DNA of 64,000 nt from Cinnamomum chago (Eukaryota > Streptophyta > Magnoliopsida > Laurales > Lauraceae): NCBI GenBank assembly GCA_038049695.1, contig CP142458.1, forward strand, positions 62,033,501 to 62,097,500, given 5' to 3'. This document shows, in pieces, positions 7,511 through 37,700 of the stretch (positions within the stretch are counted from its first letter, which is position 1; each line of letters begins with the position of its first letter). Made by a program: the position numbers and the translations under genes. The notes under the pieces are model-generated. The model had not been told where the DNA came from, did no database searches, and saw only the letters and a program-made list of their open reading frames with translations.

Positions 7511-7689
7511 GCAACCAACTAGGCCAGCACTTCCAGCCCCACCTCAGAGGCTGGCATTATTAGCACCACCTCCAAGACCCCAACAGCAGCAACGACAACA
7601 GCCAGGAAGGCCAGGACAACAAATTCAACAAGCCAGGCAGTTGCCACAGCAAGTTGGGAGACTTTTTGCAACGAATCGAGAGCAGGCAG

Positions 7690-10615
7690 AAGCAGCTGGC
7701 AATGTAGTAGAAGGTACTGTTTTGATATGTGCTAGAGACGCGAAGACTTTATTCGATTCGTGGTCTACACATTCATTTGTGGCGCCCCATTTTGCTAGTA
7801 AACTTCAGCAACGACCAAAGTTGCTACCATTCGTGTTGATGGTGACTACCCCAGTGGGTAAACGAGTAGCTTGCGATAACTACTACCCCAAGTGTAGTGT
7901 ACAGATTGGAGATCTGCTGATGCTAGCAGACTTGATAATTCTTTCGATGCAAGACTTTGACGTCATCCTTGGAATGGATTGACTCGCGAGATACCGAGCT
8001 TGTGTGGATTGCTTCCACTAAACTATCACCTTTAAGGTAGAGAAGCCTGAGTCGGATGTGATATTCGAGGGTGAATGGAGAGAAAGGCCTAAATCCGGAC
8101 TCGTGTCAGCGTCAGATGCTATCAAGCTTCTAAAGAGTGGCTGTGAAGGCTACTTTGCTTTTATCTCTGAGAAGAAATCCCGCGTAAAGCTAGAAGATAT
8201 TCATGTGGGGTGTGAATTTTCAGATGTGTTTTCGAATGAGGTTCCAAGATTTCCTCTGCCCAGAGAAGTAGACTTTTATATCGATTTGATGCCGGGCAAC
8301 TCTCCGATTTCAAAGGCACCATACAGAATGGCCCCAACAGAACTCATAGAATTGAATGAACAGTTGCAAGACTTGCTAGACAAGGGACTTATAAGTCCTA
8401 GTGTTTCACCTTGGGGAGCTCCAGTATTGTTCGTAAGGGAGAAGGGTGGTTCTCTTCGCATATGCATAGACTATAGGCAGATCAACCAAGTAACGATCAA
8501 GAACAAGTATCCGTTGCCTCGCATTGACGAACTGTTTGACCAGCTTCAAGAAGTAGCGTATTTCTCAAAGATCGATCTCAGATCCGGATCCCATCAGTTG
8601 AGAGTCCGTGAGCAAGATATTGAGAAGACAGCGTTCAGAACGAGATACGGTCACTATGAATTTCTTGTGATGCCTTTTGGCTTGACCAATGCACCGGCAG
8701 TGTTTATGGCATTGATGAATAGGATCTTCGCTCCCTACCTCGATCAGTTTATCGTTGTCTTCATTGATGATATTCTGGTATATTCCAAGTCTATAGAAGA
8801 GCATGCAGATCATCTCAGATCATCGCTTCAGCTTTTGAGGATGCACCAGCTGTATGCTAAGCTCGATAAGTGTGATTTTTGGCTTGAACAAGTAGCCTTT
8901 TTAGGGCATATCATCACCCGAGATGGCCTAAGAGTAGATGCAACCAAAGTAGAAGCAGTGATAAATTGGCAAAGTCCGAGAACAGTGGCAGCGATTCGAA
9001 GCTTTCTGGGTCTAGCAGGATACTACCGCAGATTCGTCAAGGATTTCTCAAAGATCTCAGCCCCGTTGACTAAATTGTCCACGATAGATATGACATTCAT
9101 TTGGACTAAGGAATATGAAGCCAATTTTCAGACTTTAAAGGAGAAGTTGACGACCGCCCCAGTTTTGTCTCTACCTGAAGGTACAAGAGGTTTTGTGATA
9201 TATTCACATGCATCTAGAGTTGGATTGGGGTGTCTTTATGAAAAATGGAAAGATTATAGTCTATGGGTCAAGAAAATTGAAGAATCATGAGAAGAATTAT
9301 GCCACCCACGATCTTGAGTTAGCAGCTATTGTGTTTGCACTAAAGCTTTGGAGATATTATTTTTATGGAAACCAATTTGAAGTGCATTCCGATCATCTCA
9401 GCTTACAATTTCTATTTTCTCAACAAGATCTCAACATGAGGCAGAGACGGTGGTTAGAATTCGTAAAGGACTATGATTTTCCAATTAAATACATTCCAGG
9501 AAAAGAAAATGTGGTGGCCAACGCTTTGAGTAGGAAGCCGTCACTAGTTGCGGCTATGGGCACACAATGGTGCAAATTTGATGCTTTCGAAGAACTAGAT
9601 GTAGATGTTCGATTGCTTAGTGACTCAGTAATGATGGCAGCCATGTTAGTGTACGAACCAGAGCTAATGTATCGAATTAAGAATGAGCAGTTCGAAGACC
9701 CTAATCTAGCCAAGATAAGAGATCATATTGTAGAGAAGCTTGATTTCCAATTGGTGGACGAGGTCTTGTATTTCAGGAATCGGTTGTGTGTACCAAAGAT
9801 TAAGTAGTTGATACATCCAATTTTGACGGAAGCACGTCAGGCAAGATACGCGATGCACCCTGGAAGTACCAAGATGTACAGAGATCTTAAGAGACGTTTT
9901 TGGTGGAAAAATATGAAGAGAGAAATTACGGAGTTCGTATCCAAATGTTACACTTGCCAGCGTGTAAAGTTTAAGCATAGGCGACCTCCAGGTTTATTGC
10001 ACCCCTTGTCTATCCCTCAGTGGAAATGGGAGCACATATCGATGGACTTCGTTTTAGGTCTACCTTTGACTAGTCGGAAGAACAATGTAATTTGGGTGAT
10101 AGTTGACTGGTTGACGAAATCAGCCCATTTTCTCCCTTTCAAGAAAGCTATGAAGTTCAACGAGATGGCAAAGCTCTTTGTTAAGGAGATAGTTCGATTG
10201 CATGGTATTCCGGTGTCAATAGCCTCCGATAGAGATATGAGGTTTGTTTCTTCATTCTGGCAGTCTTTTCAGCAGTCCATGGGCACTAAACTCAGCTTTA
10301 GCACCGCTTATCATCCACAGACAGATGGACAATCTGAACGCACCATCCAGACCCTAAAAGACATGCTACCAGCTAGCGTTCTTGACTTCGGCGGCGAGTG
10401 GGATGAACATTTGGCCTCAACATGAATAATAGCTTTCATTCGACTATTGGGATGTCGCCTTTTGAAGCTCTCTATGGACGGAGTTGTAGAACTCATGTTT
10501 GTTAGGAAGAAGTCGGCATGAGAAGTTTTCATGGATCTACGATTGTTGCAGATACAGCCGAGAAAGTTCTTTAAGTCAGAGAGAGACTGAAGACTGCACA
10601 ATCTAAATAGAAAAG
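7690..10615 (+). pseudogene. pol region of the gypsy element: protease, RT, RNase H, integrase (fossil)
   Basis: In order: an aspartic-protease-like region near 7740-7980; reverse transcriptase near 8330-8900, with [12 protein letters not shown] and the FIDDILVYS catalytic-core motif; RNase H near 9190-9530, with ATHDLELAAIVFALK; and integrase near 9820-10420, with a zinc-binding HHCC region and TAYHPQTDGQSER. This order is typical of Ty3/gypsy. The region is broken and is interrupted after 10620 by another element. Confidence 0.92.
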
Positions 10616-10620
10616 CTACG

Positions 10621-12601
10621 TGTTGTGAATTTAAATTCAATCTTTTAATGCTGCAAGTGCACAGCTGTCCTTTTGAGACAGTGGCTAATACAGGTCAAAT
10701 CCCACAGGGAGATCTACTGAAATATTTTTTTTTATTAAAATCTAAATTTTTTTTATAATGAAAATAAAAATAAAAATAAATCAAGATTTGAATGAGAGAT
10801 AAAGCTACTATACAAGATGAACGGATAACAATGATGATAAAGGTAGATCAGAGCAACAAAGAGTCTATTAATTAATTTCAATACTCAATCCACATACTAG
10901 TCTTTTGTCTTGCAAATAACTCAGATTAGAAACAACTCAATGTTTCTAATCTGGAAGATATTTTTCTTTTAAAATCCAATTCTTAAACAGAAGAACCCAA
11001 GATCTCCAACACCTAATAAAAATCACTTTGACCATCAGTTAACAAATTAAGCATAAAATATTAAAGGTATAAAAACCTAAGTATATCCTATCAAAAGAAG
11101 ATTAATTGATCAAAAAGAAATTTATTTAAAATATAAAGCAAAAGTTTGCCTGCGGCACGAAGGCAAATCTATTATTCTACTAAACATGCATCATAAGGAC
11201 ATAAAAATTAAATTAAAGACATATAATAAAAATAAAATCACTTAACTTCACTTTGTGCTCCGATCCAAAGAATCTACTCCTCCATTCCAAAAGATGTGAT
11301 TTTCATTAAAAACTTCATGGCAATTACAATTTTCTCTCACACTCTTCTAACTTAGTTCTGGAACAGGGCCCCAGAATACACAAAAATAACTCTTAAATTC
11401 TATTAAGTAGGAAAATAAGAGAAAACGAAGAGAAAACGAAGAGAAAATAATTAGGGACGTCCGAGGGAGGAGTGTGTCTCCCGTATGCTACCTTTTGGTT
11501 CCTTTTATATCTCCGATTATCTTACATATATATTGAATCTAGACACCTTCTTTACAGATTTGATTTATCTTCACTGATAAGGTATATCTCTTATCCTTTT
11601 TGAATTTGAATAAGGTGAAAGCTTTTGAAAAGTTCTAGGTGGCACGGCTAATCTTCAAATGGGGTCCCACAAGGGATGTGTAGCAATTAATTATCAATGG
11701 TGTGGATTTAATTTGCAATCCCGTCTAAAAATAAATATAAAAATCTCCGGACCCATAACTTTATCAATATAGCTCTGATTTGCGCATTCTTGGGATCTGC
11801 AAGTATCTACTCTGAATAAGCTTTCCAACGATAGGTAAATTTCATCGATCCGACGGTCGGATTGAAAGTTATGACAATTTGAAGATGAGTTGTTCTCAGA
11901 AAAAACGAGTTTAACTTTTAAAATTTGATTTGTAATGGATTTTATCTCTGCACAACTTTCATTTTTAAAAGGACATCAGATGTGGATGATTCAAACTCTT
12001 CTTCTTTTGTTCCAATCAAAATTGTACTCTTTAAATTATCCATTAATAATTTCAAATTTGCAATCACTGTGGACCCTACCATGTGGGACATTTCATCTAT
12101 TTGAACAGTGGGGCATATAAGAAGTCTTCTACAGTAGTTAGGACTCTTCAATTGACATAATGAGTAGACCCCTCCTTTGATTGATTTTCATGTGGTTTGT
12201 GTGTGGGATCCACGTGGTGAATTCTTCAATTTACTTCTTTTCAAGCTTCAATTCAGCAATGCAGGGCCAGGATGACTATGTGTGCTTAAAAGTGGGCTCC
12301 GTATCAGAGGTCTGCAATTCTCATTTTTTACACATTCTAATTCAATACATTAAATATTGAAGAGTCCATATTGAAGCGGGACGCATTCGGACTGAGTTCT
12401 ATTTAAACTGGGACTCTTCGGAGAAAATTTGCAAAACAATCTAAGTTTATGCAGAAAATGTATGAAAAGAATGAAAATTCAGGTTCCTAGGTGAAAATGC
12501 ATGAAATGATGAAATTAGATGAATAATGATGCAATTCACCCAATTAAATCCCTAATTCATCATAAAATGATGCGTAAATGTGCAAATTCATGAACTCAAC
12601 A
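10621..12601. mobile_element. Solo-LTR-like insertion nested in the gypsy pol region
   Basis: The segment starts TGTTGTGAAT and ends AACTCAACA, giving short inverted TGTTG/CAACA ends. It is flanked by a 5-bp duplication CTACG (10616-10620 and 12602-12606). Without it, the integrase-region coding sequence on the two sides would be adjacent. It carries no recognisable gag or pol, and at 1981 bp it fits a solo LTR of another family or a non-autonomous LTR-type element. It is younger than the gypsy copy it sits in. Confidence 0.85.
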
Positions 12602-13064
12602 CTACGCGGACAATAGAAGAAAGATACTCAAATTCCAAGTTGGAGATTGGGTGTTTTTGAAGAAATCTCCGATGAAATGCACCATTCGGTTTGGGCAATA
12701 AGGTAAACTCTCCCCAAGATATGTGAGACCGTTCGAGATAAAGAGCCGAATAGGCGATGTGGCGTATAGATTGAAGCTTCCACCCGAATTCGCTGGAGTA
12801 CACGATGTGTTTCACATTTCCATGCTTCGTAAATACATCTGTGATCCGTCTCATGTTATCCAGTATGAAGAAGTTCAAATCAAGCCTGACTCCACATACG
12901 TCGAACGTCCGCTTTGTATTATTGATGAGAAAGAGCAAGTGTTGCGGACGAGGACGATTCATTGGGTGAAACTCCTTCGGGATCATCTTGGACCCTACGA
13001 AGTTATGTGGAAACTCGAGGAACAAGTTGCACGACATTATCCTGAACTCTTCGCCTATGTATGA
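12602..13064 (+). pseudogene. 3' end of gypsy integrase region with chromodomain-like tail (fossil)
   Basis: After the nested insertion, the sequence encodes the usual gypsy integrase C-terminal region, including VFHISMLRKY near 12805-12835, and a tail with IHWVKLLRDHLGPYE that resembles the chromodomain-type end of plant chromoviruses. It ends about 40 bases before the 3' LTR. Confidence 0.8.
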
Positions 13065-13088
13065 TCATTCGGAGGACCGAATGAGTCC

Positions 13089-13101
13089 AAGAGGGGGAGA
13101 A
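13089..13101 (+). other. Polypurine tract of the gypsy element
   Basis: AAGAGGGGGAGAA lies two bases before the start of the 3' LTR, the expected place for plus-strand priming. Confidence 0.8.
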
Positions 13102-13102
13102 A

Positions 13103-15783
13103 TGTTACACCTGACCCGAATTAACCATGATTAGTACTAATTAAGTGTGTTTTAGCTAAATTAATTATGTTTAATTGCTAATTATGGTAATTAGTGATTA
13201 TTAGTCTTTATAGACTGAGTTAGTTGAGTTTTTAACCCTGGATAGGTGAGTTGGAGTAGAGTTAACTCGGTTGGGTAGAGTCAAGGGCTTTTTCATAAAT
13301 ATGAACTTTCGCGCATCATTTGCACGTCATCTCAACACCATCGCGTGTATTTCGACGAGTATGTCGATTTTCGTACTAAGTATTTCACCATTTGACTAAC
13401 CATTGAACTAATAAGCCCTCATTATTTGACACAAAATGAGAATGTACTATTTGAGTGGACCTTCTTGCAAAAAAAAAAAAAAACATTTGTCATCCTCACC
13501 CCCTTTAAATACAACCTTATCCCTTCCTTTTCATTTCCTTTTCATTCTTCTCCTCTCTACTCACTACTTCTTCTTCTTCATTCCTCCTTCTCTCTTTCTC
13601 AACCATTAAGAAGAGTTAGTGCATGTGCCTTGGGAGCTAGGGTGACCTCATCATCATCTTCTTCATTTTCCCTTCTTCTTTGTTGACAAGAAATCACCTC
13701 TACCATCTCCCATCTTCTCCAAATTCGGAATCCTTGCAAGAGGTAAGCTTCAAACACCTTTGATTTGTTTCTTTGCATTGGAATAGAGTTAAGAGACTCA
13801 TGATTGTGCATACATGCATGTTCATCCCATTTTCCATGTGTTTATGTGACATTAGGGTTTGTTATTTGGGGATTTTGGGGCTCCTTGAAACAAGTGTGTG
13901 AGAAAGGTTTTGTAAAGCTCATTAGAGGCAAGTATAAGCTTAATTTGGATTTACATCATGTCTTATTCAATGCTTTTATTTCTTAATAAATGGATGGATT
14001 GGAATTGGTTTTATGGTTTATAATTGATGGAATTGGATGGTGGGGATTGTATGTATTGTAAGGGGAGAAGGGATGCTCCATGACTGCAGGTCTGATGTTA
14101 GAAGAAGTGTAGGAAGGAAAGGAGAGGAAATACCATCAGAAATTCCGAATTGGAATTCTGGAATTTCCGGAATGGAATTTTGCAGTGGGCGCTCGAGCGT
14201 GCTAGGGGCCGCTCGAGCGCGCAACCCCTTTGGACACCTCCGCTTGAGTGGATATGGACTCGCTCGAGCAGACCTGAAGCCAAGAATTTTAGGCATTTTG
14301 GGCCCAATTAAAGGGAGTATTAACACTCATAGCCTCAATTAACCCTCCTTAATCCTTCATTAAGTGGATTATGGTGCACACCTTAATTCCATAGGAAATT
14401 AGGAATTGTCGAGACCTTATGACCTTAAAATGGAACCGTTAACCTTAGTAATTGGTCTAATGGATATTTATTAGTCTAATGCTATGCCATGAAGGTTAGT
14501 TGGAAATTCAACATACTTCTCATGAATAGTGACACCTAATGAGACAGTAATACGTTGATCTTCCCAACCTATTTTGTATTGGACGGTGAAAGACTAAAAA
14601 CAATAATTTAGTGTTTGTTAGTAAAAATATCTTGATTTCCTTAAATTATTGCATTTCATATTAGAGTATAATTTCATTCTTGATATCAAATCATACTTAG
14701 TAGATCGATAATATTGTCAGTATTCATTGAGGTCCAATTGTTACAACCAATTAGTAACTTTTGTATTGTATATCCAATTTGGAAATTATTGGAAATGAGG
14801 ATTGAGTAAATAATTTAGTGTATGTGATTATTATTCGATTTGATTATGATTAAATGAAAACAAACTTACTTAAATCCTATTTTTATTCGAATATTATTTG
14901 ATTCGATCGAGTCAACACTACTTTACTTCGACCTTGTGATACCCGACGGGGTTGAACTTGGTCTATTTATTCGAGACTACTGCAGTAAATCATCTGGAGC
15001 ACAGGAACTCCAGACCCAGGTAGCCATTTTGCCTTTGGTCGGGCCGCTGGTGACATTCCAACTAGATTTGCTCTCTTTTGAGAGGATGAGCTTAAGGTAG
15101 TAGCCAAATTAGTATGTTTTCATTATATTTGACTCACAAGCATAAATGATTCGATTTTCGCATAATTTGCTTAGTTGATACACATCATTGACATCTATCA
15201 ATTTAATTGTCTTTAATTCAATTTGAAGCATTATGTACTTCTTTATTTATGCTTATATTTGCTAGATCGTCGTATTGAGATACTACTCTTGGTGTCACAG
15301 TCGCAGGTGCAGCTCCCAGCCCTGGATTAGAAGAGTGGCCAGAACAAGGGCCAGCTTAGATTCTTATTCTTCGGAGCACGAGTTATCCATTTTGGAGATG
15401 TTACAGTTAGTGTGACTAACCCTTTTTGTGTGGGTCATACTTAGTTTATTCTTTTGAGTATACTTTGGTATAGTTATATAGGGTTCTTTCATTGTTCCCT
15501 CTTTTGCAAATCAATATTTATACTTGTATAATTCTTTTGTACCAAACTTAAATGTTTAATTGAACTGAATGAGAAATGATACATTCTGTTAATGAATTAC
15601 AGCTTCCGCTATGTTTAAATGTCATTCATATGTTTTAGTGAGCTAGACTCACATGTGGAATAGTTGTTTTTCTCTCTTTCGTGTGTTGTATATGGCTCGA
15701 GACAGGTACAACATCACGGGAGAACATGTGTCTCACCTCGGGAATTACCCTATGCCATGGTGATTCTGGACCGGGATGTGACA
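13103..15783 (+). repeat. 3' LTR of the gypsy element
   Basis: It begins TGTTACACC and ends GATGTGACA. It matches the 5' LTR closely but carries an extra pyrimidine-rich stretch near 13545-13605 and lacks a GC-rich stretch near 15320. CTCGAG palindromes occur near 14193, 14213 and 14263. Confidence 0.95.
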
Positions 15784-15788
15784 AGATC
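15784..15788. repeat. Right target-site duplication of the gypsy element (AGATC)
   Basis: The bases directly after the terminal ACA of the 3' LTR read AGATC, matching the left flank. The host sequence then continues as ATTGCGGAAACTTA, as in the unoccupied site in unit B. Confidence 0.93.
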
Positions 15789-16494
15789 ATTGCGGAAACT
15801 TAAGAGATAGGGCCATGACCGGCTTGATTGCAATACTGCCATGGGCCGTGGCTTTGCTACCATGGAATTTTTTTTTAAAAGACTACTGTTCCATAAAACC
15901 CACCATATTGTTGTTAAAACAAAAACTCTTTGATTTATACAAGAGAAGAGAGTAATTGGAAAAAGAATTTTTCAAATATAAACATACAAGCTTTTAGGCT
16001 TTCCACAGTTCATGTATATTTTCACCTTCAAAGACCCAAAATGTCATTATAGTGCAAATTCTATAAATTTGATGAGATTAACAATTAAAGTGCAAATTCT
16101 ATAAATTTGATGAGATTAACATAATTATGAGACGAAACCAAAGTACATGCATATTTGCACCTTCAAAGACCCTAGATGACATTGAAGTGCGAGATCTATA
16201 AAATTGATGAGATTGCCATAATATGAGAGAAGCGAGCAACCATTTGCACTGCATGTATGAGACTAATTAAGATTTTTCAGTCCTAGTGTATGATTACCAT
16301 AAAATGATATTAAGAACATGGTGTTCGCAATATATTCACATCGCCAACAATTAGTCCAAATCACTATATATGAGCAATTTAAAATTTTGAAAGATGCCCT
16401 TAATAATGTAAGTATATTAGCATTCCAAGAAGTTAGCATCAATGATGGTTTCCAAATTATCAACACTCCCATGTTCACCAAAATATCCAAACAG
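15784..16494. repeat. Tandem unit A, middle part (non-coding)
   Basis: This is the continuation of unit A after the gypsy element and matches unit B 20834-21500 and unit C 27390-28040. It has its own internal repeats: blocks reading ATAAATTTGATGAGATTA recur at about 30 to 90 base spacing near 16070, 16105 and 16200. A block near 15880-15990 also resembles the block near 3420-3540, an older duplication inside the unit. No gene is evident. Confidence 0.65.
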
Positions 16495-16530
16495 TTGAGA
16501 AAAAGAGGGAGAGCACAAGCCATCTTCATT
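16495..16530. other. Short inverted segment relative to unit B
   Basis: Up to CCAAACAG the sequence follows unit B, near 21490. The next roughly 36 bases are the reverse complement of a segment found in unit B near 22415-22450 (minus-strand reading GATGAAGATGGC then CTCTTTTTCTCAA). The block in between, present in units B and C, is missing here. This marks a local inversion with deletion at the edge of the foreign insertion in unit A. Confidence 0.65.
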
Positions 16531-16539
16531 TCAAGAAGT

Positions 16540-18045
16540 ATCCCCAAATGCATGTAATCATGAAATTAAATGTTATTCTTTGCAATTATATAAAATTAAG
16601 TCTATAAATGCTCATGAAATAATGACCTAATAAACTAATTTTATGGACTTATCAAAGGTCATCCATCGGGCTAAGGCTAAGACCTGAAAGTAAAAAGAGA
16701 GACCCAAAAACCCACCACTTTGTGCCGAAGGATAAAATACCTAACTGGGAAGAGCCCAAAGTAGATGCGCTGCACTGATCTTCTTTTTAATTAATAGCTG
16801 AGGCATGACGATGCAAGCTTTAGGCTAAAGAGAGAGTTTGGGAGAGACCGATAGTGGCAGTGGAAACAAACAATAAATAATCAAGAGAAACCAGCATTTC
16901 ATTCCTTCAAAAGAAAAGTGGAAAGAAAGTCAAGGACCAGCCCACAGCCCGGGCAAAATCACTAACAAATCACTTGGGAACATCAGAGACCGGAGGAACA
17001 GGCTCGTCAGCAGGGGAGTGACCTTCACCCCCGACCACGCCAGAGGGCGATGCAACTTCGTCGACCTGGGGCTGAGCTTGGGACTCAATAAGCAGCGGCG
17101 GGGGTGAAGCCTTCTTAGACTGAGCTACGTATTTGGCCCAGAGATGGGAATCCTCCTGTACGCCGGCGTCTCCGAGACCTACGTCGTAGCCTCGCTTGAA
17201 CACGAGGACCTTGATCTGCTCGACATGCTGCAAATAAAGTGCTTTGATTTCCTCAAACTGAGCGTCCTTCAACCTCTCTATAGACTCTCTCATCTCCTCT
17301 TCTGCCTCGGCCTGCCTAGAAAGGAGAGCCTCGAGCTTCATCTCGGTCGCAGTAAGGCGGCTCTTAGCCGCGACCGCCTGAGCTTCCGCAATCTTCAAAG
17401 CCTTGGAGGAGGCATCGGCATTGGATTCAGCTAAACGCCGAGCATCCTTTGAATCCGTAAGCTCCTTTTCTAGGTCCTCCACCCGCTTCTGGAATTTCTC
17501 CAAATTACGATCGGAGATAGTGAACCATTTTTGGAGCCCCTGCAAGTAGGGAGAAAGATTGTTAGGAGGACCTCAAATGAAAAAGGTCAAATAATCAGAA
17601 GCCAACCTACCAGAAGGCATTGCTGAACTCCTGTGGACAGGAGCTCATGACTAGGCAAAGCATCGTGCAGGTTCATGTCAGAAGGGCAAAGGGCGGACTT
17701 GCCCACAGTTAGTGCCAAGGACGGGGACCCAGAAATCCCCTCACCCAAAGATGGATTTGGATCTCGGAAGGGTCCGAGCGAATCCTTCCGTCCCGAGGAA
17801 GAACTTGGGGCCAGGGGAGGCAGGCAATCATCCAACCACATGGATAGGGAGTTGGCGTCGTCAGCAGGCTTGGCAGAGTGTTTGCCCTTAGCCTTTCGCA
17901 TGCACAGATCATGATGGAGCTCTGGGGCAGGCCTTTTGCCAAGTGTAGACGAGGGGCCAGAGGGAGGAACCTTGCCAACTCCAGAGGTTGGAAGATCACC
18001 GAGGCTGTCAAAGAGCTTCTTCGATTTGCGCCGCCGAGACACGGC
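16540..18045 (-). mobile_element. Foreign segment inserted in zinc-finger copy A, coiled-coil-coding
   Basis: Unit B and unit A agree up to about 18046 (TTGCATGGGGACATG) and then differ completely, until unit-type sequence returns near 16530. The segment is more GC-rich than its surroundings and codes on the minus strand for a Ser/Pro-rich region, then, after a short intron, a long coiled coil. This layout resembles the C-terminal part of the plant family often named putative gypsy-type transposon protein (Transposase_28); that match is from memory. No terminal repeats or target duplication are obvious, so the ends are approximate. Confidence 0.55.
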
Positions 18046-18735
18046 TTGCATGGGGACATGCTGCTTCTTCCCACCCGTCAAATGAGGCACACTGTTGCAC
18101 TGTTCACCATGGAGGATGGGTTGCTTGCCCGCAACGTTTTGCGGTTTACTCTGCTGCCGGTTTGCAGTCACCCCACCACCGCTGACTTGCTTAGCTGGCT
18201 TTTTAGGGTTGTGAGGCTTGTGAGGAGGTGGATAGGAGGAAGCAGAAGCAGAAGCCTTGTTATTACTGCCTCCAGGTTTCATTGCTATTACTAGTCTCTC
18301 ACCTTTGGCTTTGTGCTTCATCCCCCCTTGAAGAGAGAATTGCTCGCCCTGCCTTCGCATCGCCACGTCCCTCTCATACGCGAGATCCCTCCTGACTTCC
18401 TCTTCGAGCTCGTGCTTTCTCAGGAGGATCTCGGAAGCTATGATCTCTTCTCGAATGCGCTCCTTCTCCATCTCTCTTGGAAGAGCTCCTCTTGAAGGGA
18501 TCATTGGGTTCTGCAACTGACCAGGCCTTCCGAGATTGGGACCAGAATAACCAGCTAGGAATCGAGACAAAGAAGAAGCAGGAAAAATGATATGAAAGCA
18601 TAGAGAAATCAGTATCTGATCTTCCTACAGTGAAGAAATCAAAGAAAAATAAAAAGAAATGAGAGAGAGACCTTGTAGAGCTTGAGCCGAGAAACGGGCA
18701 TGACGATCATCTCCTGCTCTGAACTTGAATTCCAT
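16970..18735 (-). CDS. Chimeric zinc-finger-family protein, copy A, fused to a coiled-coil tail
   Basis: The model has three exons on the minus strand: 18672-18735, 17611-18554 and 16970-17539, about 525 residues. Exon 1 encodes MEFKFRAGDDRHARFSAQALQ. Intron 1 ends at a pyrimidine-rich TTCCTAG acceptor, giving ALQ-AGYSGPNLG. Residues about 55-90 form the charged helix of this family (REEIIASEILLRK). The finger region, near residue 170, is degenerate: the expected C-x2-C pair is lost. From about residue 192 the sequence is foreign (SRRRKSKKLFDSLG onward), followed by a coiled coil in exon 3 near residues 350-440. The donor CTG|GTAGGT and acceptor TTGCAG|GGG keep the frame open across the fusion. 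Exon structure is inferred, and expression is unknown. The first part is host family; the tail is probably transposon-derived. Confidence 0.55.
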
Positions 18736-19265
18736 GGGAATTGAACTGAAATGAGACTAGTCGAGAAATACAATCTAGAAAGTAGAAATGAAGATCTTGA
18801 AATTTGTGGGTGAGAGATAGGGGTGCAGGCCTTTGAGGAAAGTAAAGGAATAGTGGTAACAAAGCAAATGATTTTCATTGGCTCATGCCTTCTTCCTTTT
18901 TGGGAAGAGTCCATTCAGCAAAAATTTCTCGCTGTATCAAATGAAACTACCCAATTTCTTCTCACTAACAAAGCAAATGATTTTCATTGGCTCCTGCCTT
19001 CTTTCTTTTTGGGAAGAGTCCATTCAGCAAAAATTTCTCACAGTATCAAATGAAACTACCCAATTTCTTCTCACTTCCCTCTTAGAAATACCTTTTTCAT
19101 TTTACTGTCGTCTAGCCCAAATCTTAGAATAAGAGAATTAGATGCATTTTCTTTTTACTGGAAATTAGAATCATTGAAATGCGTATATGTCTGTTTAATG
19201 AAATGACTAAATTTTAGTTTAATATAAATTGGCACTACATAAAATTGAGCTGGTATAAAGATATA
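18736..19265 (-). promoter_or_regulatory. Upstream region of zinc-finger copy A
   Basis: This block matches the upstream regions of copies B (23712-24120), C (29892-30150) and D (37701-38090), including GATTTTCATTGGCTC and the AAATTTGTGGGTGAG leader. A segment of about 97 bases (GCAAATGATTTTCATTGGCT through CCAATTTCTTCTCACT) is present twice, near 18866 and 18973. It is the likely promoter and 5' leader; no clear TATA box was placed. Confidence 0.45.
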
Positions 19266-19785: not shown

Positions 19786-20333
19786 TAGGGGTGAGCGTCT
19801 GTCTAACGAACCGAAATTTCGAACCGAACCGAACCGAAATTTTTTATTTGGTTCTGTTATACGGCTAAATTGGTTAGGTTGGGTTAAGATTTACAGCAAA
19901 TTTGGATAATATAGTTCGGTTAGATTTTGGATTTTTTTTCACCAAATTAACCGAATTAACCGGATTTATTAATATACATATAAAAGTTTATATTTTAGAT
20001 ATATAAAATATATAAACTCTTAAGGCTAATAAACTGTTGAATACTTGGCTTTAATATCTTTTTTATTTTGGATATTTAGAATTTGCTAGTTGTCTATATT
20101 TTGAGTTTTTTTATTATAGAAATGTTCCCAATAAATTTGGGCCCCATAACAAAGGCCAACATATGGCCTTTCGACCGAATTGACCGAAATTTAACCCAAA
20201 TATTTTCGGTTCGGTCGAATTCGGTTACAACTCATAATTCGGTTGGTTCGGTTGAGAATTTATTCGACCCAAATATTTCGATTCTTTGAAAATTTCAACC
20301 AAACCGACCGAACCGACTGAATACTCACCCCTA
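19786..20333. mobile_element. hAT-type MITE in unit B
   Basis: The element is 548 bp with terminal inverted repeats TAGGGGTGAG / CTCACCCCTA. It is flanked by an exact 8-bp duplication CCAGCAGC (19778-19785 and 20334-20341). The other units lack it at this site (for example CCCAGAAGCTACAGAAC near 26874). Its subterminal regions are rich in CCGAAC and CGGTT motifs. It has no coding capacity, and 8-bp duplications point to hAT mobilisation. Confidence 0.92.
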
Positions 20334-21776
20334 CCAGCAGCTACAGAACAGATTCATCGTCCACAACTGGAAGAATCATTGATGCATCCAGATGAGCTTA
20401 ACCATCTAATTAGTAACCTGCAACCAGATGACCTGAGCAGCTATTAACATTCAACAAGATCAAGTAACCGCGAATTGAACAATCAATAGCATGTGCATGA
20501 TTTTCCAGAGGAAGCTTCTCTTGAGCATGGTAAACTTTGTGGAAGCATGACTCGATGTTGATGGGTCCAATCAACAAAACCTAAAAGATGGAAGAGCTGA
20601 AAATGATGCTGCTGACCATTGTTTAAGTGAAAATTTTAAAAAGGCTACATTCGTGTAAAATTCACCCTACTTCTACAAACAGAACTTCTTCCAATTGTAT
20701 AAGAGAAAAGAGTAACCGAAAAGAGAATAATTCAATTCTAAACATTCAAACTAACCATTATCTCTTCTAACAAACCATTCCCACTATCTACTCATAGGGT
20801 CTCTAACACCCTCCCATCACAAAATGGCGATGAGATCATTGCGGAAACTTATGAGATAGGGCCATGACTGGCTTGAATGCAAGATAGCTATGGGCCGTGG
20901 CTTTGCTGCCATGAGAATTTTTTTAAAAAGACTACAGCTCCATAAAACCCACCATATTGTTGTTAAAACAAAAACTCTTTGATTTACACAAGAGAAGAGA
21001 GTAACTGGAAAAAGAATGATTCAAATGTAAACATACAAGCTTTTAGGCTTTCCACAGTTCATGTATATTTTCACCTTCAAAGACCCAAAGTGTCATTAAA
21101 GTGCAAATTCTATAAATTTGATGAGATTAACATAATTATGAGACGAAACCAAAGTATATGCATATTTGCACCTTCAAAGACCCTAGATGACATTGAAGTG
21201 CAAGATCTATAAAATTGATGAGATTGCCATAATATGAGAGAAGAAGCGAGCAACCATTTGCACTGCATGTATGAGATTAATTAACATTTCCCAGTTCCAG
21301 TGTATGATTACCATAAAATGATATTAAGAACATGGTATTCGCATCGCCAACAATTAGGTCCAAATCACTATAAATGAGCAATTTAAAATTTTGAAAGATG
21401 CCCTTAATAATGTAAGTATATTAGCATTCCAAGAAGTTAGCATCAATGATGGTTTCCAAATTATCAGCACTCCCATGTTCACCAAAATATCCAAACAGAA
21501 CTATTTGTTAATGTTTTGTTGAGAATATAACTAATTCAATTTGTCGATTTATGAGGGACTTATTAAACGTAAAATTGAAAAAAAATAAGCCAATACCATG
21601 TGACAAACATAGAACTAAAGAATTTAGTAATTCTAGCAAATTAACTGTAATGGGAATTGCAGATTGATTATATGAACTGAAATATTGAATAGCCATGAAT
21701 TTGGCGAATCTAGCATGGGAACTGAGCAAATAGACTTCAACTGAACCAACGTAACAGCCATTGACCACAGTAGACT

Positions 21777-21791
21777 CTGTGTGTGTGTGTG

Positions 21792-21845
<54 letters not shown>
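21777..21845. repeat. GT and GA microsatellite in unit B
   Basis: A short (GT)n run is followed by (GA)n of about 50 bases. The same position in unit C (near 28294-28336) has a shorter GA run, so the repeat predates the unit duplication and has changed length since. Confidence 0.95.
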
Positions 21846-21848
<3 letters not shown>

Positions 21849-22145
21849 CAATTTTAATAATTTTTTGTGCCAAGGATTCTATAAAATACGGATAATTTAA
21901 ACTTCAAAATTATGATTACATACATGAATTATGATTACCATAGCTAATGCCATGAAAATGGCAATCCACCTAAAACCACTTCCACTACTAATTTGTGGAT
22001 GAATGGATGATATATCTAAAAAAGATCAGAAGAAAATCCACAAATCAGAAGATCTGATGAAAATATGCAAAGCAGACCACAATTGTCATGATACTAGAGC
22101 ATCAAAAAAAAAAAAAAAAAACTGCAAACGTGGTGCTTAAACATC

Positions 22146-22343
22146 CTAGTCAAACAAAGATAGAGATTCTATCTCCTTAGCCCAACACTTAGAAGTTCCC
22201 CCTGCAAAGTTGAAGCCAACAGCAAGCACAACGCAAGACGTCTCTCCACCTACTGCTATTTTGTCAGTCTCATCACTTGGAGCCTCCCTTCTTTCAGCCA
22301 TCTCTTCTGTGGATGGTACCCAATCCCTTGTTTGTGATGCCAC
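22146..22343 (-). pseudogene. Terminal-exon remnant of zinc-finger copy B
   Basis: The 65-codon open segment contains VPSTEEMAERREA, which matches VPSTEEVANRMED near the C-terminus of the gene D protein. It lies about 450 bases downstream of the stop of copy B on the same strand, with non-homologous sequence between. It is best read as the original 3' coding end, now stranded behind the shortened coding region, although it could still be spliced in. The unit C equivalent is near 28630-28830. Confidence 0.55.
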
Positions 22344-22724
22344 AATTTCCTCATCTTGCTTTCCAATGCTCTGCTTCCCCTCTTACCACTTTCACTACCT
22401 TCCCATTGACAAGATGAAGATGGCTTTGTGCTCCCCCTCTTTTCTCAACTGTTAGTTTGAGAAAAGGTCTCTCTCAAATTAGAGTAAACAAAGGAAAGAA
22501 ATGTAATTCCAAGATTGAATTAGGGCTGTTGGATGTAAAATGCAAGATGGGCAATGCAAAATCTAATGGATTGGATTGATGTGCTTACATTACATGATAC
22601 TTCAAATAAAAACTTACAACCCACTGGGCTAAGTGCCACTCCCAAACAATCCACTCACTCATATGTTACTATGTAACCAGGAAAACAACCCACACCTATG
22701 CATATTTGGCAAAGTCAAGCCCAA

Positions 22725-22727
<3 letters not shown>

Positions 22728-22771
<44 letters not shown>
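22728..22771. repeat. AT microsatellite
   Basis: A (TA)n run of about 40 bases lies just downstream of the stop codon of copy B. Unit C has only a short ATATATAT at the matching place (near 29232). Confidence 0.95.
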
Positions 22772-22795
22772 CAAAAGCCCAATATTTCTGCATTA

Positions 22796-23711
22796 TTATT
22801 TCTTAACACCAACTTGGGGCTTCCCCTTGGCCTTGTTATTGCCATTGCCATTGCCACCAGGCTTATTTGGTTTTTGTGCCCTCGCTGCAGTTCCCGATGA
22901 CGCCACCACCCTATTCTTGCCCGGCTTAACCTGTACCACCACTTTCACCTTCACATCAGCTCCACCTTTCCCATTTCCCTTATTCGCTGAAGCCTTGTGC
23001 TCTTGCATGGGGACATGCTGCTTCTTCCCACCCATCAAATGAGGCACACTGTTGCACTTGACTTTGCAATGTTCACCATGGAGGATGTGTTGCTTGCCCA
23101 CAATGTTGTGCGGTTTACTCTGCTGCCGGTTGGTAGTCACCCCACCACCGCTGACTTGCTTAGCTGGCATTTTAGGCTTGTAAGGCTTGTGAGGAGGTGG
23201 GTAGGAGGAAGCAGAAGCCTTGTTATTACTGCCTCCAGGTTTCATTGCTATTACTAGTCCCTCCCCTTGGGCTTTGTGCTTCATCCCCGCTTGAAGAGAG
23301 AATTGCTCGCTCTGCCTTCGCAGCGCCACCTCCCTCTCATACGCGAGATCCCTCCTGACTTCCTCTTCGAGCTCGCGCTTTCTCAGGAGGATCTCGGAAG
23401 CTATGATCTCTTCTCGAATGAGCTCCTTCTCCACCTCTCTTGGAAGAGCTCCTCTTGAAGGGATCATTGGGTTCTGCAACTGACCAGGCCTTCCGAGATT
23501 GGGAACAGAATAACCAGCTAGGAATCGAGACAAAGAAGAAGCAGGAAAAATGATATAAAAGCATAGAGAAATCAGGATCTGATCTTCCTACAGTGATGAA
23601 ATCAAATCAAAGAAAGAGAAATGAAAGAAAGAAAGAGAGAGAGAGACCTTGTCGAGCTTGAGCCGGGAAGCGGGCATGGCGATCATCTCCTGCTCTGGAC
23701 CTGAATTCCAT
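22796..23711 (-). CDS. Zinc-finger-family protein, copy B (shortened, open)
   Basis: The two-exon model (23648-23711 and 22796-23517) encodes about 261 residues with no internal stop. Exon 1 starts MEFRSRAGDDRHARFPAQ. The intron ends at TTCCTAG and joins to AGYSVPNLGRPGQL. A charged helix follows near residues 50-90 (IREEIIASEILLRKRELEEE), then a basic Pro-rich linker. Near residues 166-190 there is one degenerate U1-type finger: HCKVKCNS and GGKKQH remain, but the first Cys of the C-x2-C pair is Gly. The last 70 residues are Lys/Gly-rich (end GKPQVGVKK). Compared with gene D the multi-finger part is missing. I infer a nuclear, possibly RNA-binding protein by family resemblance; the finger may not bind zinc. 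Exon boundaries rest on frame and splice signals shared with copies A and C. Confidence 0.65.
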
Positions 23712-24181
23712 GGGAACTGAACTGAAATGAGACGAGTCGAGAAATACAGTAGAAATGAAGATCTTGAAATTTGTGGGTGAGAAATAGGGGTGCAACTGTG
23801 CAAGTGCAGGCATTTGAGGAAAGCAAGGAATAGTGGTACGAAGACCAGGCTGTCTGGAAACGAAGCAAATGATTTTCATTGGCTCCTGCCTTCTTTCTTT
23901 TTGGTAAGAGTACTTTCGGCAAAAATTTCTCACAGTATAAAATGAAACTACCCAATTTCTTCTCACCTTCCTCTTAGAAATACTTTTTCATTTTACTGGA
24001 AATTAGAATCATTGAAATGCGTGTATGTCTGACTAATGAAACATGACTAAATTTTAGTTGAATATGAATAGGCACTATGTAAAATTGAGCTGGGATAAAA
24101 ATATGATTAGAATTTATAAACATGTTATATATTTTACACATCATTTTTTAGTATTTTAAATGTAGAAAAGAGTATAGTTTA
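23712..24181 (-). promoter_or_regulatory. Upstream region of zinc-finger copy B
   Basis: It is homologous to the leaders of copies A, C and D and contains GATTTTCATTGGCTCCTGCC near 23870. It is the likely promoter and 5' leader. No distinct core promoter element could be placed. Confidence 0.4.
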
Positions 24182-26553: not shown

Positions 26554-28293
26554 CCCAAAGTTGTATCATACAAAATTGCGCAACATGCAATTGAGAATCC
26601 AACAACTTTGAAGACTTGAGGGTCTTGTGAAAGATGCAGAAGAATTCAAGCAATCATAATAATGCAGAGAATGTATATCTACTATCCTACTAGTCAATTT
26701 CTTCAAACATGAACTTGGCCTAGAACTAAACTATAGTCAAAACCAGCAGAAAGACACCAATTGAAACAGGTTACAGAAATATCATACAAGCAAACCTAGG
26801 GGCTAAAAACGTAAGACCAACCAGTATCCAATGATTATCATGCCTACCTATAAAGGCAATGTTCTTTGCTTTTCCCAGAAGCTACAGAACAGGTTATCGT
26901 CTACAACATGAAGAATCATTCATGCATCCAGATGGGCTTAACAATCTGATTAGTATCCTACAACAAGATGACTTAGGCGTAATTAACATTCAACAAGATC
27001 AAGTAACAAAGAATTGAACAAACAATAGCATGTGCATGATTTTCCAGGGGGAACTTCTCTGGAGCATGGTTCACTTTCTGCAAGCATGACCTGATGTTGA
27101 TGGGTACAATCAACAAAACCTCATGGATGGAAGGGCTGAAACTGATGCAGTTTTTGCTGCTGTCTGCTGACCATTGTTTATGTGAAAATTTTAAAAAGGC
27201 TACATTCCCATAAAATTCACTGTACTTCTACAAACAGAACTTCAATTTGTATACGATAAAAGAGTAAATGAAAAGAGAATAATTCAAAATCTAACATTCA
27301 AACTAACCATTATCTCTTCTAACAAACTATTCCCTATATCTATTCTTTGGGTCTCTCAACACCCTCCCATAAAAAATTGGCGATGAGATCATAGTGGTGA
27401 GGAAACATAAGAGATAGGGCCATGACCGGCTTGATTGCAAGATCTCTATGATACCATGCATAAATTTTAAAAAGACTTCAGTTCTATAAAATTCTACATA
27501 TTGTTGTTAAAACAAAAACTCTCTGATTTATACAAGAGAAGAGAATAATCGGAAAAAGAATAATTCAAACGTAAGCATAAAAAATACTCTTCAGACTTTT
27601 TCCTTTGTGTATGCATAGTTTCACCTTCAAAGACCCAAAGACCCAAAGTGACATTAAAGTGCAATTTCTGTAAATTTGATGAGATTACCAAAATTATGAG
27701 AAGAAACCAAAGTTTATCCATATTCTCACCTTCAAAGACCCTTAATGACATTAAAGTGCAAGATCTATAAATTTGATGAGATTACCATAATATGAGAAGA
27801 AGCCAGCAACCATTTGCACTGCATATAGGAGACTAATTAAAATTTCCCAGTTCCAGTGTATGATTACCATAAAATGATATTAAGAACATAGTGTTCGCAT
27901 TGCCAACAATTACCCGGGACGTCCAAATCACCATAAATGAGCAATTTAAAATTTTGAAAGATGCCCTTAAGTCATTTGCATTCCAAGAAGTTAGTGTCAA
28001 TGATGGTTTCCAAATTATCAGCACTCCCCATGTTCACCAAAATAACCAAACAGAAGTATTTGTTAGTGTTTCGTTGCAAATATATAACTAATTCAAGTAA
28101 ATGTAAAATTGAAAACTAAAGAATCTAGTAATTCTAGCAAATTAACTGTACATGAAGTTTACCACTCTCTGGAAAGAAGATTGATGATATGAACTGAAAT
28201 ATTGAGCAGCCATTAATTTGGTGAATCTAGCATGGGAACTGAGCAAACAGACTTCAACAGAACAAAGTAACAACCATTGACCAGAGTAAACTG

Positions 28294-28336
<43 letters not shown>
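28294..28336. repeat. GA microsatellite in unit C
   Basis: A (GA)n run of about 43 bases at the position matching the GA repeat in unit B. Confidence 0.95.
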
Positions 28337-28339
<3 letters not shown>

Positions 28340-28627
28340 AATTTTAATAGATTTTTTTGTCCCTGGGATTCTATAAAATATGGAAGATTTAAACTTCAAA
28401 ATTATGATTACATACATGAATTATGATTGCCATGAAAATGGCAATCCACCTAAAACCATTTCCACTACTATGAGTGGATGAATGCATGATAGAACTGAAA
28501 GTTTCTGAAGATCATTTGTTTTAACTTAAAAAGATCTGAAGAAAATCTAAAACACAGAAGATTTGATGAAAATATACAAATCAGACCACAATTGTGGTGA
28601 TACTAGAGCAAGTCAAACAAACAAAGA

Positions 28628-28835
28628 TAGAGGTTCTATCTCATTAACCCACTACTAAAAGTTCCCCCCGCAAAGTTGAAGCCAACAGCAAGTACTATTC
28701 ACTGATCTTACTCAGTCCTTCTCTTCCTTTATTTCCGTCAAGCAACGCAAGACGTCTCTCCACCAACTGCTATTTTGTCAGTCTCTTCTGTGGATGGTAC
28801 TCATTCCCTCGTTTGTGATGCCCCCATTACCTCAT
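28628..28835 (-). pseudogene. Terminal-exon remnant of zinc-finger copy C
   Basis: It matches the unit B remnant at 22146-22343 (same TCTTCTGTGGATGGTAC and AAAGTTGAAGCCAACAGC blocks on the plus strand). It differs by an inserted stretch near 28690-28745, which breaks the reading seen in B. It lies downstream of the coding region of copy C and is probably not translated. Confidence 0.45.
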
Positions 28836-35767: not shown

Positions 35768-37321
35768 TTAGTAACCTGCAACAGAGAAAATAAACAAGAA
35801 TCGAACAATCGCGTGTGTAAGATTTCCCAAGGAGAAATCTTTTCGAGCACCATCCTCCATTCTGTTAGCCACCTCTTCTGTGGATGGTACTGGTACACCA
35901 TCCATTGTTTCTGATGCCACCACCTGTTCATCTTGATGACTTCCAATGCTTCGTTTCACTTCTATAATTTCTACTACCTTGTTTACATCAGTTTCAGTTT
36001 CCTCATTGCTTCCATAAGTCACTCCAGCATTTGCATCACCAGTATGGTTCACTGAGACCCCTTTGTGATCACTCCCCAGCTCCTTCATGCGAGCCAGATG
36101 CTTCTTCCCACGCAAATGAGACTCCAATATGTGCTCACCGTAGCACTCCACATTGCAAAGTTCACAACGGACGGGAAGCTTTTTTACTGCTTTACTCTGT
36201 TTTTTGGGCACTTGCTGCAGGGACTGGCCAACTTGGAGCTTCTGTAGCTCCTTTGAGCTGGAGGTGGTCATGACTTCGTTCACAAGCTTATTAGACTTGT
36301 CATCTTTGTTCAGAGCTGGTCCCTTCTTGTTGTTGCCACTAGATTTAATATTTTCCTCCATTGTTTTGGCCACCAAATCTGCTCTAATTTCCTCGTTTAC
36401 CTTCGCCAGTAGAGCTTTGAGCTTCTGCATGCAGGAAAGGTGCTTCTTCCCACTCAAATGAGACGCAAGCATGCTCTCACTGTTGCACTGCAGTTTGCAA
36501 TGTTCACAATAATGGATGAGGGGTTGCTTGCTAACAATCTCCTTCGCTTCTTTCGGCACCTGTTGTTCCAATTTCTTCTCTTGCTCATTGCTGGTCACAC
36601 CTTGCTTCTCAAGTGTGTTAGAATTGTCAGCCTTTTTCGAGATCGTAGAGGAGGAAGCAGGTTTACTTGCTATTAGCAGTTCCTCCTCTTTGGCCTTGTG
36701 CTTCTTCCCTTGAAGATGTTCATTTAGACCCCGTTTGCTCGGAGTGCTCTCTTGACACAAAGTGCAAGACCACTCCTCTTTCACATTGTTTGGATTTATC
36801 AACTGTGCAACTTCAGTTTCATTGCTTTCATCAGGTTTACTTGCTTTTATCAGTGCCTCCTCTTTGGCCTTGTGCTTCTTCCCTTGAAGATGTTTATTCA
36901 GATTTTGTTCGCTTGTGGTTCTCACTTGACATAGAGCGCAAGACCACTCCTCTTTCACATTGTTTGGATTTATCAACTGTGAAACTTCAGTTTCATTGCT
37001 TTCATCAGGTTTACTTGCTTTTATCAGTGCCTCCTCTTTGGCCTTGTGCTTCTTCCCTTGAAGATGTTTATTCAGATTTTGTTCGCTTGAGGTTCTCACT
37101 TGACATAGAGCGCAAGACCACTCCTCTTTCACAGTGTTTGGATTGATCAACTCTGCAGCTTCAATTTTATTGCTTTCATCACGTTTACTTGCTATTAGCA
37201 GTTCCTCCTCTTTGGCCATGTGCTCCTTCCCATAAACATGTTCATTCAGAGCCTGTTCGCTCGGTGCTATCACGTGACAAAGATCACAAGACCACTCCAT
37301 TTTCACCATCTTTGGAATCAC
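35768..37321 (-). CDS. Six-finger U1-type C2H2 zinc-finger protein, copy D
   Basis: The 517-residue open frame has six fingers of the form C-x2-C-x12-H-x5-H: residues 12-34, 70-92, 128-150, 186-208, 272-294 and 386-408. The first four are tandem 58-residue repeats (EEWSCALCQV ... LINPNNVK); repeats 2 and 3 differ by only about two bases of 174. Fingers 5 and 6 are more diverged and lie in Lys/Gln-rich linkers. This finger class (zf-met/U1 type) is known for binding double-stranded RNA or RNA-protein complexes in the nucleus, so an RNA-related role is inferred. The family's N-terminal exon is not in this frame; it lies upstream in a decayed form. The C-terminal 25 residues (NLTHAIVRFLFIFSVAGY) look like read-through into an intron: TTCTCTGTTGCAG lies at its end, as downstream of the other copies. 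Start codon and ends are therefore provisional. Confidence 0.75.
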   Translation of the reverse strand: MIPKMVKMEWSCDLCHVIAPSEQALNEHVYGKEHMAKEEELLIASKRDESNKIEAAELINPNTVKEEWSCALCQVRTSSEQNLNKHLQGKKHKAKEEALIKASKPDESNETEVSQLINPNNVKEEWSCALCQVRTTSEQNLNKHLQGKKHKAKEEALIKASKPDESNETEVAQLINPNNVKEEWSCTLCQESTPSKRGLNEHLQGKKHKAKEEELLIASKPASSSTISKKADNSNTLEKQGVTSNEQEKKLEQQVPKEAKEIVSKQPLIHYCEHCKLQCNSESMLASHLSGKKHLSCMQKLKALLAKVNEEIRADLVAKTMEENIKSSGNNKKGPALNKDDKSNKLVNEVMTTSSSKELQKLQVGQSLQQVPKKQSKAVKKLPVRCELCNVECYGEHILESHLRGKKHLARMKELGSDHKGVSVNHTGDANAGVTYGSNEETETDVNKVVEIIEVKRSIGSHQDEQVVASETMDGVPVPSTEEVANRMEDGARKDFSLGNLTHAIVRFLFIFSVAGY

Positions 37322-37700
37322 AAACTCTTCGGCTTCAATGTTATTGCCTCCACCGGTTTCTCTTGCTATTAGTAGTTTCCTCTGTTGCGCTTACGCCCTT
37401 GTGTTTCTTCCCTTTAAGATGACTACTTTTCAGATCCCATTCCCTTGTTACACGCACATTACACAGATCCCAAGACCACTCCTCCTTCGCCTTGTTCTGA
37501 TTTCATCAACTCTGCCGCATCAACTGCAGCTTCAGTTTTAATGCCTCCACCAGGAGGTTTACTTGCTACTTACAGTGAAGAAATCAAAGAGAGAAATGAA
37601 AGAATGAGAGAGATACCGTGTAGAGCTTGAGCCGGGAAACGGGCATATGTGGGAAATGGCGCAAGACAGGATCTCCTCGTGCTCTGAACTTGAATTCCAT
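37322..37700 (-). pseudogene. Decayed N-terminal part of zinc-finger copy D
   Basis: Exon 1 is recognisable from 37700 (MEFKFRARGDP) to a GTATCT donor at about 37616, but relative to copy C it has lost bases, so the later reading (AP-FPTYARFPAQA) is in another frame. Downstream, near 37400-37500, a seventh finger is visible (EEWSWDLCNV ... HLKGKKHKG); its first Cys is Trp and the frame differs from the main open frame. Copy D either uses an internal start or has lost its N-terminus. Confidence 0.55.

What the first reader, a model, noticed from the sequence alone, without database searches (positions are those of the whole stretch)
16970..18735. Zinc-finger copy A is an in-frame chimera with a transposon-like coiled-coil protein
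At 18046 the family sequence stops and a foreign Ser/Pro-rich and coiled-coil coding segment begins. The reading frame stays open through the junction and through a GT-AG intron to a normal stop (about 525 residues). Copy B at the same point continues into its own Lys/Gly-rich tail. Domain capture by insertion is a known route to new plant genes; here both the parent form (B) and the chimera (A) lie in one window.
Basis: partly seen in the sequence, partly recalled or inferred. Interest (0 to 1): 0.75.

Follow-up and report, generated by a model that had tools for sequence, protein, structure and literature searches.

The report
Decaying gene fused to retrotransposon piece
One copy of a decaying plant gene family has had its tail end replaced by a piece of a retrotransposon's own protein gene, still in the right reading frame; it is a well resolved example of a known kind of accident, and nothing so far shows it to be a working new gene.

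Summary
Copy A reads as a 525-residue ORF over three exons (18735-18672, 18554-17611, 17539-16970, minus strand) and changes identity at 18044/18045. In the 1.06-Gb assembly holding the window, the tail's DNA is a dispersed repeat (33 of 43 matches); the family half matches only chromosome-8 places (9). The tail is the C-terminal half (Ser/Pro linker, coiled coil) of the antisense ORF of a Retand-like retrotransposon, in that ORF's native frame and with its native intron. Corrections: (1) not an insertion: 1550 bp replaced 1503 bp, as a patchwork of 35 bp of inverted local DNA, 125 bp of another repeat's end and 1390 bp of Retand-like DNA, which fits illegitimate repair; (2) A, B and C have no detectable zinc finger, and B is a relaxed sister, not an intact parent; (3) no sign of selection: A/B shared codons have dN 0.057 and dS 0.041; A's tail-branch changes (21 nonsynonymous, 10 synonymous, 0 stop) match neutrality; the frame would stay open by chance about 30% of the time. 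Most likely a drifting fusion ORF. Transcription is untested.

The parts
18672..18735 (-). Exon 1 of chimera A (family-derived, ATG at 18735)
   Evidence: aligns with B exon 1 23711-23648
18555..18671 (-). Intron 1 (GT-AG), shared with B
18045..18554 (-). Family-derived part of exon 2 (N-terminal block and a degenerate finger remnant)
18044..18045 (-). Junction between the gene family and retrotransposon DNA; it splits codon 192
17611..18044 (-). Part of exon 2 derived from a Retand-like antisense ORF (Ser/Pro-rich linker)
17540..17610 (-). Intron 2, native to the antisense ORF: aligned GT donor in 5 of 6 and AG acceptor in 4 of 6 relatives; 9-22 nt shorter in A
16970..17539 (-). Exon 3: coiled coil plus C-terminus and stop, from the antisense ORF (helix over residues 2-115 of the exon, single-sequence model)
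16655..16969 (.). Retand-like DNA 3' of the antisense ORF
   Evidence: 27 of 40 matches to 16495-16969 are of this kind
16530..16654 (.). 125-bp terminus of another high-copy, LTR-like repeat (X), abutting the Retand-like DNA
16495..16529 (.). 35-bp filler: inverted copy of DNA corresponding to B 22448-22414, from inside the stretch that A lost
21499..23001 (.). B counterpart of the stretch lost from A; includes B's Lys/Gly-rich tail (22796-23001) and 3' flank; B is collinear with C from 20334 to 22979
22796..23711 (-). Copy B, sister of A, two exons (23711-23648, 23517-22796)
35768..37390 (-). Copy D, the one in-window copy with recognised zinc fingers (six zf-met stretches)

Best explanation
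Copy A belongs to a clustered gene family and is a degenerate member without an intact zinc finger. After A and B separated, breakage and illegitimate repair removed about 1.5 kb of A's 3' end and left in its place 35 bp of inverted local DNA plus about 1.5 kb of retrotransposon DNA (Retand-like, with the end of another LTR-like repeat against it). By chance the joint fuses A's second exon, in frame, to the Ser/Pro linker and coiled coil of the Retand-like antisense ORF, whose own intron and stop codon came along. If transcribed from the family promoter and spliced at both introns it would give a 525-residue protein: family N-terminal block, linker, a coiled coil of about 115 residues, no zinc finger and no Transposase_28 domain. 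The most likely present state is a neutrally drifting ORF without selected function. Shown: anatomy, source of each piece, native frame and intron, loss of host DNA, neutral-looking substitutions. Inferred: the order of events, the repair route (patch-copying, or insertion followed by deletions), transcription, translation and lack of function.
For: Both flanks collinear with B, and B with C up to 22979. In 43 genome matches only the window itself spans the junction; 33 are the tail part alone, 9 the family part alone, all 9 on C8. 35-bp inverted filler, alignment score 26 against a maximum of 15 in 500 shuffles. X ends at 16654: 34 of 38 X matches end within 3 bases of it (4 run 12-15 bases further), and 7 of 7 copies compared with L039 match it up to that point and not beyond. 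L018 has RVT_1, RT_RNaseH, RVT_3 and rve on one strand and the tail homologue on the other, downstream. L017's upstream antisense ORF is related to 7 of 8 PF04195-positive loci, best E 1.8e-10. dN/dS between copies 0.18-0.50. Neutrality: A/B 189 codons dN 0.057, dS 0.041, differences 10/11/8 by codon position; A tail branch 21 nonsynonymous, 10 synonymous, 0 stop against a neutral 67.6/29.4/3.0%; N-terminal region, A branch 3:1 and B branch 4:0; chance of staying open 0.30 for 525 codons at 2.5% change.
Against: A's tail has no stop while 6 of 6 aligned relatives carry 2-6 in-register stops, and both A/B coding indels are multiples of three; either could reflect constraint, though both are compatible with youth. 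No copy closer than 84% was found, so a donor is not shown. PF04195 did not match the source family's upstream ORFs directly, and the tail matched none of the 8 PF04195-positive loci. The neutrality tests rest on few changes (29, 31 and 8).
Confidence: 0.78

Rival explanations
1. A functional new gene: the chimera is transcribed, spliced at both introns and kept by selection, its captured coiled coil giving the degenerate family protein a dimerisation module.
For: 525-codon frame intact through two introns; tail intact where 6 of 6 aligned relatives are broken; both coding indels in frame.
Against: dN exceeds dS between A and B in the shared half; A's tail branch, 21:10:0, is the neutral expectation; the family block, constrained among paralogs L027-L030 (dN/dS 0.19-0.56), is relaxed in A and B.
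Confidence: 0.12
2. A variant of the best explanation on the route: insertion and decay rather than patch-copying. A Retand-like element landed in A's 3' region, element X landed in it, and two later deletions cut away the rest of both with the host flanks, one deletion happening to end in frame in exon 2.
For: X sits against Retand-like DNA at X's own terminus, as in a nested insertion; no close copy elsewhere (best 84%); two separate illegitimate joints; another LTR retrotransposon of 12.2 kb also landed in A's 3' region.
Against: Needs two large insertions and two deletions within the short time since A/B separation (about 5% divergence). No intermediate is known.
Confidence: 0.45
3. Domain capture by one clean transposition act (Helitron, Pack-MULE or a simple retrotransposon insertion).
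For: The added DNA is of transposon origin.
Against: 1503 bp of host DNA are missing; no shared word of 4 or more bases between the 16-base stretches tested around the two joints, and no terminal inverted repeat seen there by eye; one end is an internal cut in an antisense ORF, the other lies inside X, after inverted host filler.
Confidence: 0.04

Closest known systems
Maize p2/p1 chimeric gene (Goettel and Messing 2009, PMC2686159; abstract and sections 10 and 14 read)
   Same: A chimera beside a tandem gene array, formed by illegitimate repair with loss of DNA and locally templated filler.
   Different: There two paralogs were fused, with 50 bp of filler in an intron, and the gene is expressed with a product identical to P1-wr; here a family exon is fused in frame to a retrotransposon ORF and no expression is known.
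Retand antisense ORFs with TRP28 (Transposase_28) and Smc domains (Vicient 2025, PMC11963269: abstract, passages and part 1 of section 11; review PMC7264820: passages)
   Same: Tail source: an ORF antisense to and downstream of pol, with a coiled coil and, upstream of it, a region related to TRP28 loci.
   Different: Here only the linker and coiled-coil half is present, fused to a host gene; PF04195 did not match the source family's upstream ORFs directly.
Fusion genes in Oryza (Zhou et al. 2022, PMC9199173; abstract and section 10 read)
   Same: Fusion involving a duplicated gene.
   Different: [quoted passage not shown] this one shows no such selection.

Membership tests
Retand lineage (Tat clade, Ty3/gypsy), for the tail's source elements | Additional RNase H between RNase H and integrase (Ogre and Retand; PMC6317226, passage) | tested here: met
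   L018 order RVT_1, RT_RNaseH, RVT_3, rve (rve 30.2 bits, just under its 32.6 cut-off). One copy tested; that RVT_3 here is the additional RNase H is my reading.
Retand lineage (Tat clade, Ty3/gypsy), for the tail's source elements | Antisense ORF between pol and the 3' LTR | tested here: met
   L018: tail homologue on the minus strand, downstream of plus-strand integrase. L020, L021 and L022 show the same layout by eye, without a domain search. The 3' LTR was not looked for.
Retand lineage (Tat clade, Ty3/gypsy), for the tail's source elements | TRP28 (PF04195) domain in the antisense ORF | tested here: inconclusive
   No direct Pfam match in 3 of 3 upstream ORFs (L017, L018, L020), even at E<=10; but L017's ORF matches 7 of 8 and L018's 3 of 8 PF04195-positive loci, L020's none.
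Retand lineage (Tat clade, Ty3/gypsy), for the tail's source elements | Position in a reverse-transcriptase phylogeny | not tested
   No reference RT set was used.
C2H2 (zf-met) zinc-finger protein, for copy A | At least one finger with both Cys and both His | tested here: not met
   No Pfam finger at E<=1 in A, B or C. Against D's finger, B lacks the first Cys and has altered spacing; A also lacks the second.
Transposase_28 protein, for the chimera | PF04195 match | tested here: not met
Product of illegitimate double-strand-break repair | Loss of target DNA, no target-site duplication, locally templated filler | tested here: met
   1503 bp lost, no shared word of 4 or more bases around the joints, 35-bp inverted local filler
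Functional new gene | Purifying selection on the fused frame | tested here: not met
   few changes, so weak constraint is not excluded
Functional new gene | Spliced transcript across 18044/18045, conservation in relatives | not testable with these tools
   No RNA data; no related plant genome held ('It has no relatives here')

The most novel reading that the evidence does not exclude
The chimera is expressed and its captured coiled coil, lacking the TRP28-like half, pairs with intact Retand antisense-ORF proteins and poisons them: a host gene that turned a fragment of the element's own accessory protein into a dominant-negative restriction factor. The genome holds at least 150 PF04195 matches over the cut-off, so related proteins are plentiful, although none of the 8 such loci checked has a tail like A's.
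Probability: 0.03. Interest if true: 0.8.

Novelty: new member of a known kind. Interest (0 to 1): 0.27.

Why it matters
It is a cleanly resolved step in the making of a plant gene-transposon fusion: the unfused sister, the lost stretch, the filler and the source family can all be named in one genome. It also shows how an intact 525-codon chimeric frame with a plausible intron can exist with no sign of selection, a caution for annotations that count such ORFs as new genes. The intron, aligned in relatives, also suggests that Retand-like antisense ORFs are spliced in the element itself.

Tried and rejected
Searches without result: viral contigs and prokaryote genome contigs with the tail, no relative; PDB by sequence, none at E<=0.1; Pfam on the tail, only generic coiled-coil matches under their cut-offs; the tail against 8 PF04195-positive loci of about 3.1 kb, none. 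The exon-3 model is one long helix and was not taken to a fold search, since a lone coiled coil matches widely.

Considered and rejected: a clean insertion with target-site duplication; the 125-bp LTR-like end as the Retand-like element's own LTR, because no match spans both parts (0 of 39 non-self matches, 0 of 39) and X ends against unrelated DNA in the copies compared; an apparent +1/-1 frame difference of A against relatives, which one search showed to come from an insertion in L025; the open frame as proof of function (chance of staying open 0.60, 0.30 and 0.24 at 1, 2.5 and 3% change, substitutions only).

Rows left out: of the 33 tail matches, 6 copies (L017-L021, L025) were aligned for frame and dN/dS; L022, L023, L024 and L026, also fetched, were left out because their matches are partial or split. 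L017 itself lacks part of exon 3. Codons with gaps or stops were dropped from dN/dS. For the tail, differences were polarised only where at least 3 outgroups agreed and none disagreed; for the N-terminal region at least 2, with 4 differences ambiguous. Genome match counts are lower bounds by the tool's own statement.

Full report
Observation. On the minus strand, copy A gives an ORF of exactly 525 codons over three exons, 18735-18672, 18554-17611 and 17539-16970, with a normal stop. It is collinear with copy B from 18045 to 18965 (B 23002-23966) and again at 15784-16494 (B 20833-21498), but 16495-18044 has no collinear counterpart in B. B runs on into its own Lys/Gly-rich tail, and B is collinear with C from 20334 to 22979 (C 26875-29453), so B shows the older arrangement. 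The joint is 18044/18045; 1550 bp of new DNA replace 1503 bp.

The tail is real coding sequence. Exon 3 has strong codon-position bias (p 3.8e-12); the foreign part of exon 2 alone does not (p 0.12), but a matrix trained on exon 3 scores it best in the chimera's frame (-4.9; the other five readings -20 or worse). The longest open stretch, 200 codons, exceeds the 95th percentile of shuffles (159) but not their maximum (259). The exon-3 model is a helix over residues 2-115 (single sequence, pTM 0.38).

Where the tail comes from. The window lies in a 1.06-Gb assembly of 14 contigs. A DNA search with 16970-18735 gave 43 matches: the window itself, 33 places with the foreign part, on ten contigs, and 9 places with the family part, all on C8. 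None of the other 42 spans the joint. Ten stretches around copies of the foreign DNA were fetched. In L018, reverse transcriptase, RNase H, a second RNase H-like domain (RVT_3) and integrase (just under its cut-off) lie on one strand and the tail homologue lies downstream on the other. This is the layout described for Retand elements: an additional RNase H between RNase H and integrase (PMC6317226, passages seen), and antisense ORFs between pol and the 3' LTR, most with a TRP28 (Transposase_28) domain and some with Smc domains (PMC11963269, abstract, passages and section 11 part 1; PMC7264820, passages). Pfam's PF04195 did not match the upstream antisense ORFs of L017, L018 or L020 directly. 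L017's ORF is nevertheless related to 7 of 8 PF04195-positive loci of this genome, best E 1.8e-10, and L018's to 3 of 8; L020's matched none, and neither did the tail itself. PF04195 is abundant here: the 150 matches scored, of 2100 candidates, are all over the cut-off, while 1 of 14 control genomes rang, below the cut-off. I therefore call the source Retand-like; an RT phylogeny was not made.

The frame and the intron are native. Six relatives were aligned with A. The aligned GT donor is present in 5 of 6 and the AG acceptor in 4 of 6; the intron is 9-22 nt shorter in A. Pairwise dN/dS is 0.18-0.27 between A and five of them, 0.50 between A and L017, and 0.19-0.43 among the six, so the antisense ORF was constrained while its elements were active. 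All six relatives carry 2-6 in-register stops; A has none.

The rest of the new segment. 16530-16654 is the terminus of another high-copy repeat, X. In one search, 38 of 40 matches are of this kind (the others being the window and one Retand-like place); 34 of the 38 end within three bases of 16654 and 4 run 12-15 bases further. Of eight X copies fetched, seven were compared with the eighth: all seven share sequence up to that point and none beyond it. A distant relative is the 1981-bp solo LTR at 10621-12601 in the window, with the 5-bp duplication CTACG; the match to it scores 32 against a shuffle maximum of 22. In A, X abuts Retand-like DNA as in a nested insertion. 16495-16529 is an inverted copy of DNA corresponding to B 22448-22414, inside the stretch that A lost (score 26, best of 500 shuffles 15). 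Loss of target DNA, absence of a target-site duplication and locally templated filler are marks of illegitimate break repair, as in the maize p2/p1 chimera (PMC2686159, abstract and sections 10 and 14). Whether the retrotransposon DNA was patch-copied from elsewhere, or arrived by transposition and was later cut down, is open. No copy closer than 84% was found.

The family half. Pfam finds six zf-met stretches in D and no finger in A, B or C at E<=1. Set against D's finger, B has lost the first Cys and part of the spacing, and A has lost the second Cys as well. So A is not a zinc-finger protein. The N-terminal block is constrained among the cluster paralogs L027-L030 (dN/dS 0.19-0.56, 73-75 codons), but between A and B it has dN 0.043 and dS 0 (73 codons); over the aligned region, polarised changes are 3 nonsynonymous to 1 synonymous on A's branch and 4 to 0 on B's, with 4 ambiguous. 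Over 189 shared codons dN is 0.057 and dS 0.041, against 4.7%, 6.8% and 7.8% difference in downstream, upstream and intron DNA. Both copies look relaxed, and B is a sister rather than an intact parent.

Is it a gene? On the tail, the 31 changes that can be placed on A's branch are 21 nonsynonymous, 10 synonymous and 0 stop; neutrality predicts 67.6%, 29.4% and 3.0%, about 21, 9 and 1. L017's branch, as a control, has 23, 5 and 3. The 525-codon frame would stay open by chance with probability 0.60, 0.30 or 0.24 at 1, 2.5 or 3% change, substitutions only. The two coding indels between A and B are both in frame, which is weak evidence for constraint. I conclude that the chimera is real and fairly recent, and most likely a drifting ORF. 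Transcription, translation and conservation in relatives could not be tested.

Known or new. Gene fusions and repair-made chimeras are known in plants (PMC2686159; PMC9199173, abstract and section 10). My literature searches with Retand, Transposase_28 and chimera terms (9 papers listed, none, 8 of 82 listed) showed no title or abstract opening about a fusion of a Retand antisense ORF with a host gene, but they cover only an open-licence library. I rate it a new member of a known kind.

Noticed in passing
3622-15783: A gypsy LTR retrotransposon lies in copy A's own 3' region (5-bp duplication AGATC at 3617-3621 and 15784-15788; LTRs differ by 6.6%). It splits the A repeat unit, whose remainder appears to be 2628-3621.
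   Followed up: partly
10621-12601: A 1981-bp solo LTR with the duplication CTACG is nested in the integrase region of that element.
   Followed up: yes
19786-20333: An insertion with terminal inverted repeats (TAGGGGTGAG...CTCACCCCTA) and the 8-bp direct repeat CCAGCAGC, absent from the paralogous site near 3121; looks like a hAT-type MITE (label from recall).
   Followed up: partly
36658-37305: Copy D contains tandem 174-bp units in its zinc-finger region; the paralog L027 on C8 has a 967-codon open frame and many more matches to this unit, so finger number seems to vary strongly across the cluster while A, B and C have no detectable finger.
   Followed up: partly
54800-55367: A perfect 284-bp tandem duplication (100% identity) just before ORFs that look like a non-LTR retrotransposon (55336-59628, by eye).
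   Followed up: no
18857-19075: 110-bp direct duplication (96% identical) in the 5' flank of copy A, single in B; it may touch the promoter.
   Followed up: no
L017-L021, antisense strand: The GT-AG intron inside Retand-like antisense ORFs is partly conserved across copies, suggesting that these ORFs are spliced in the element itself.
   Followed up: partly
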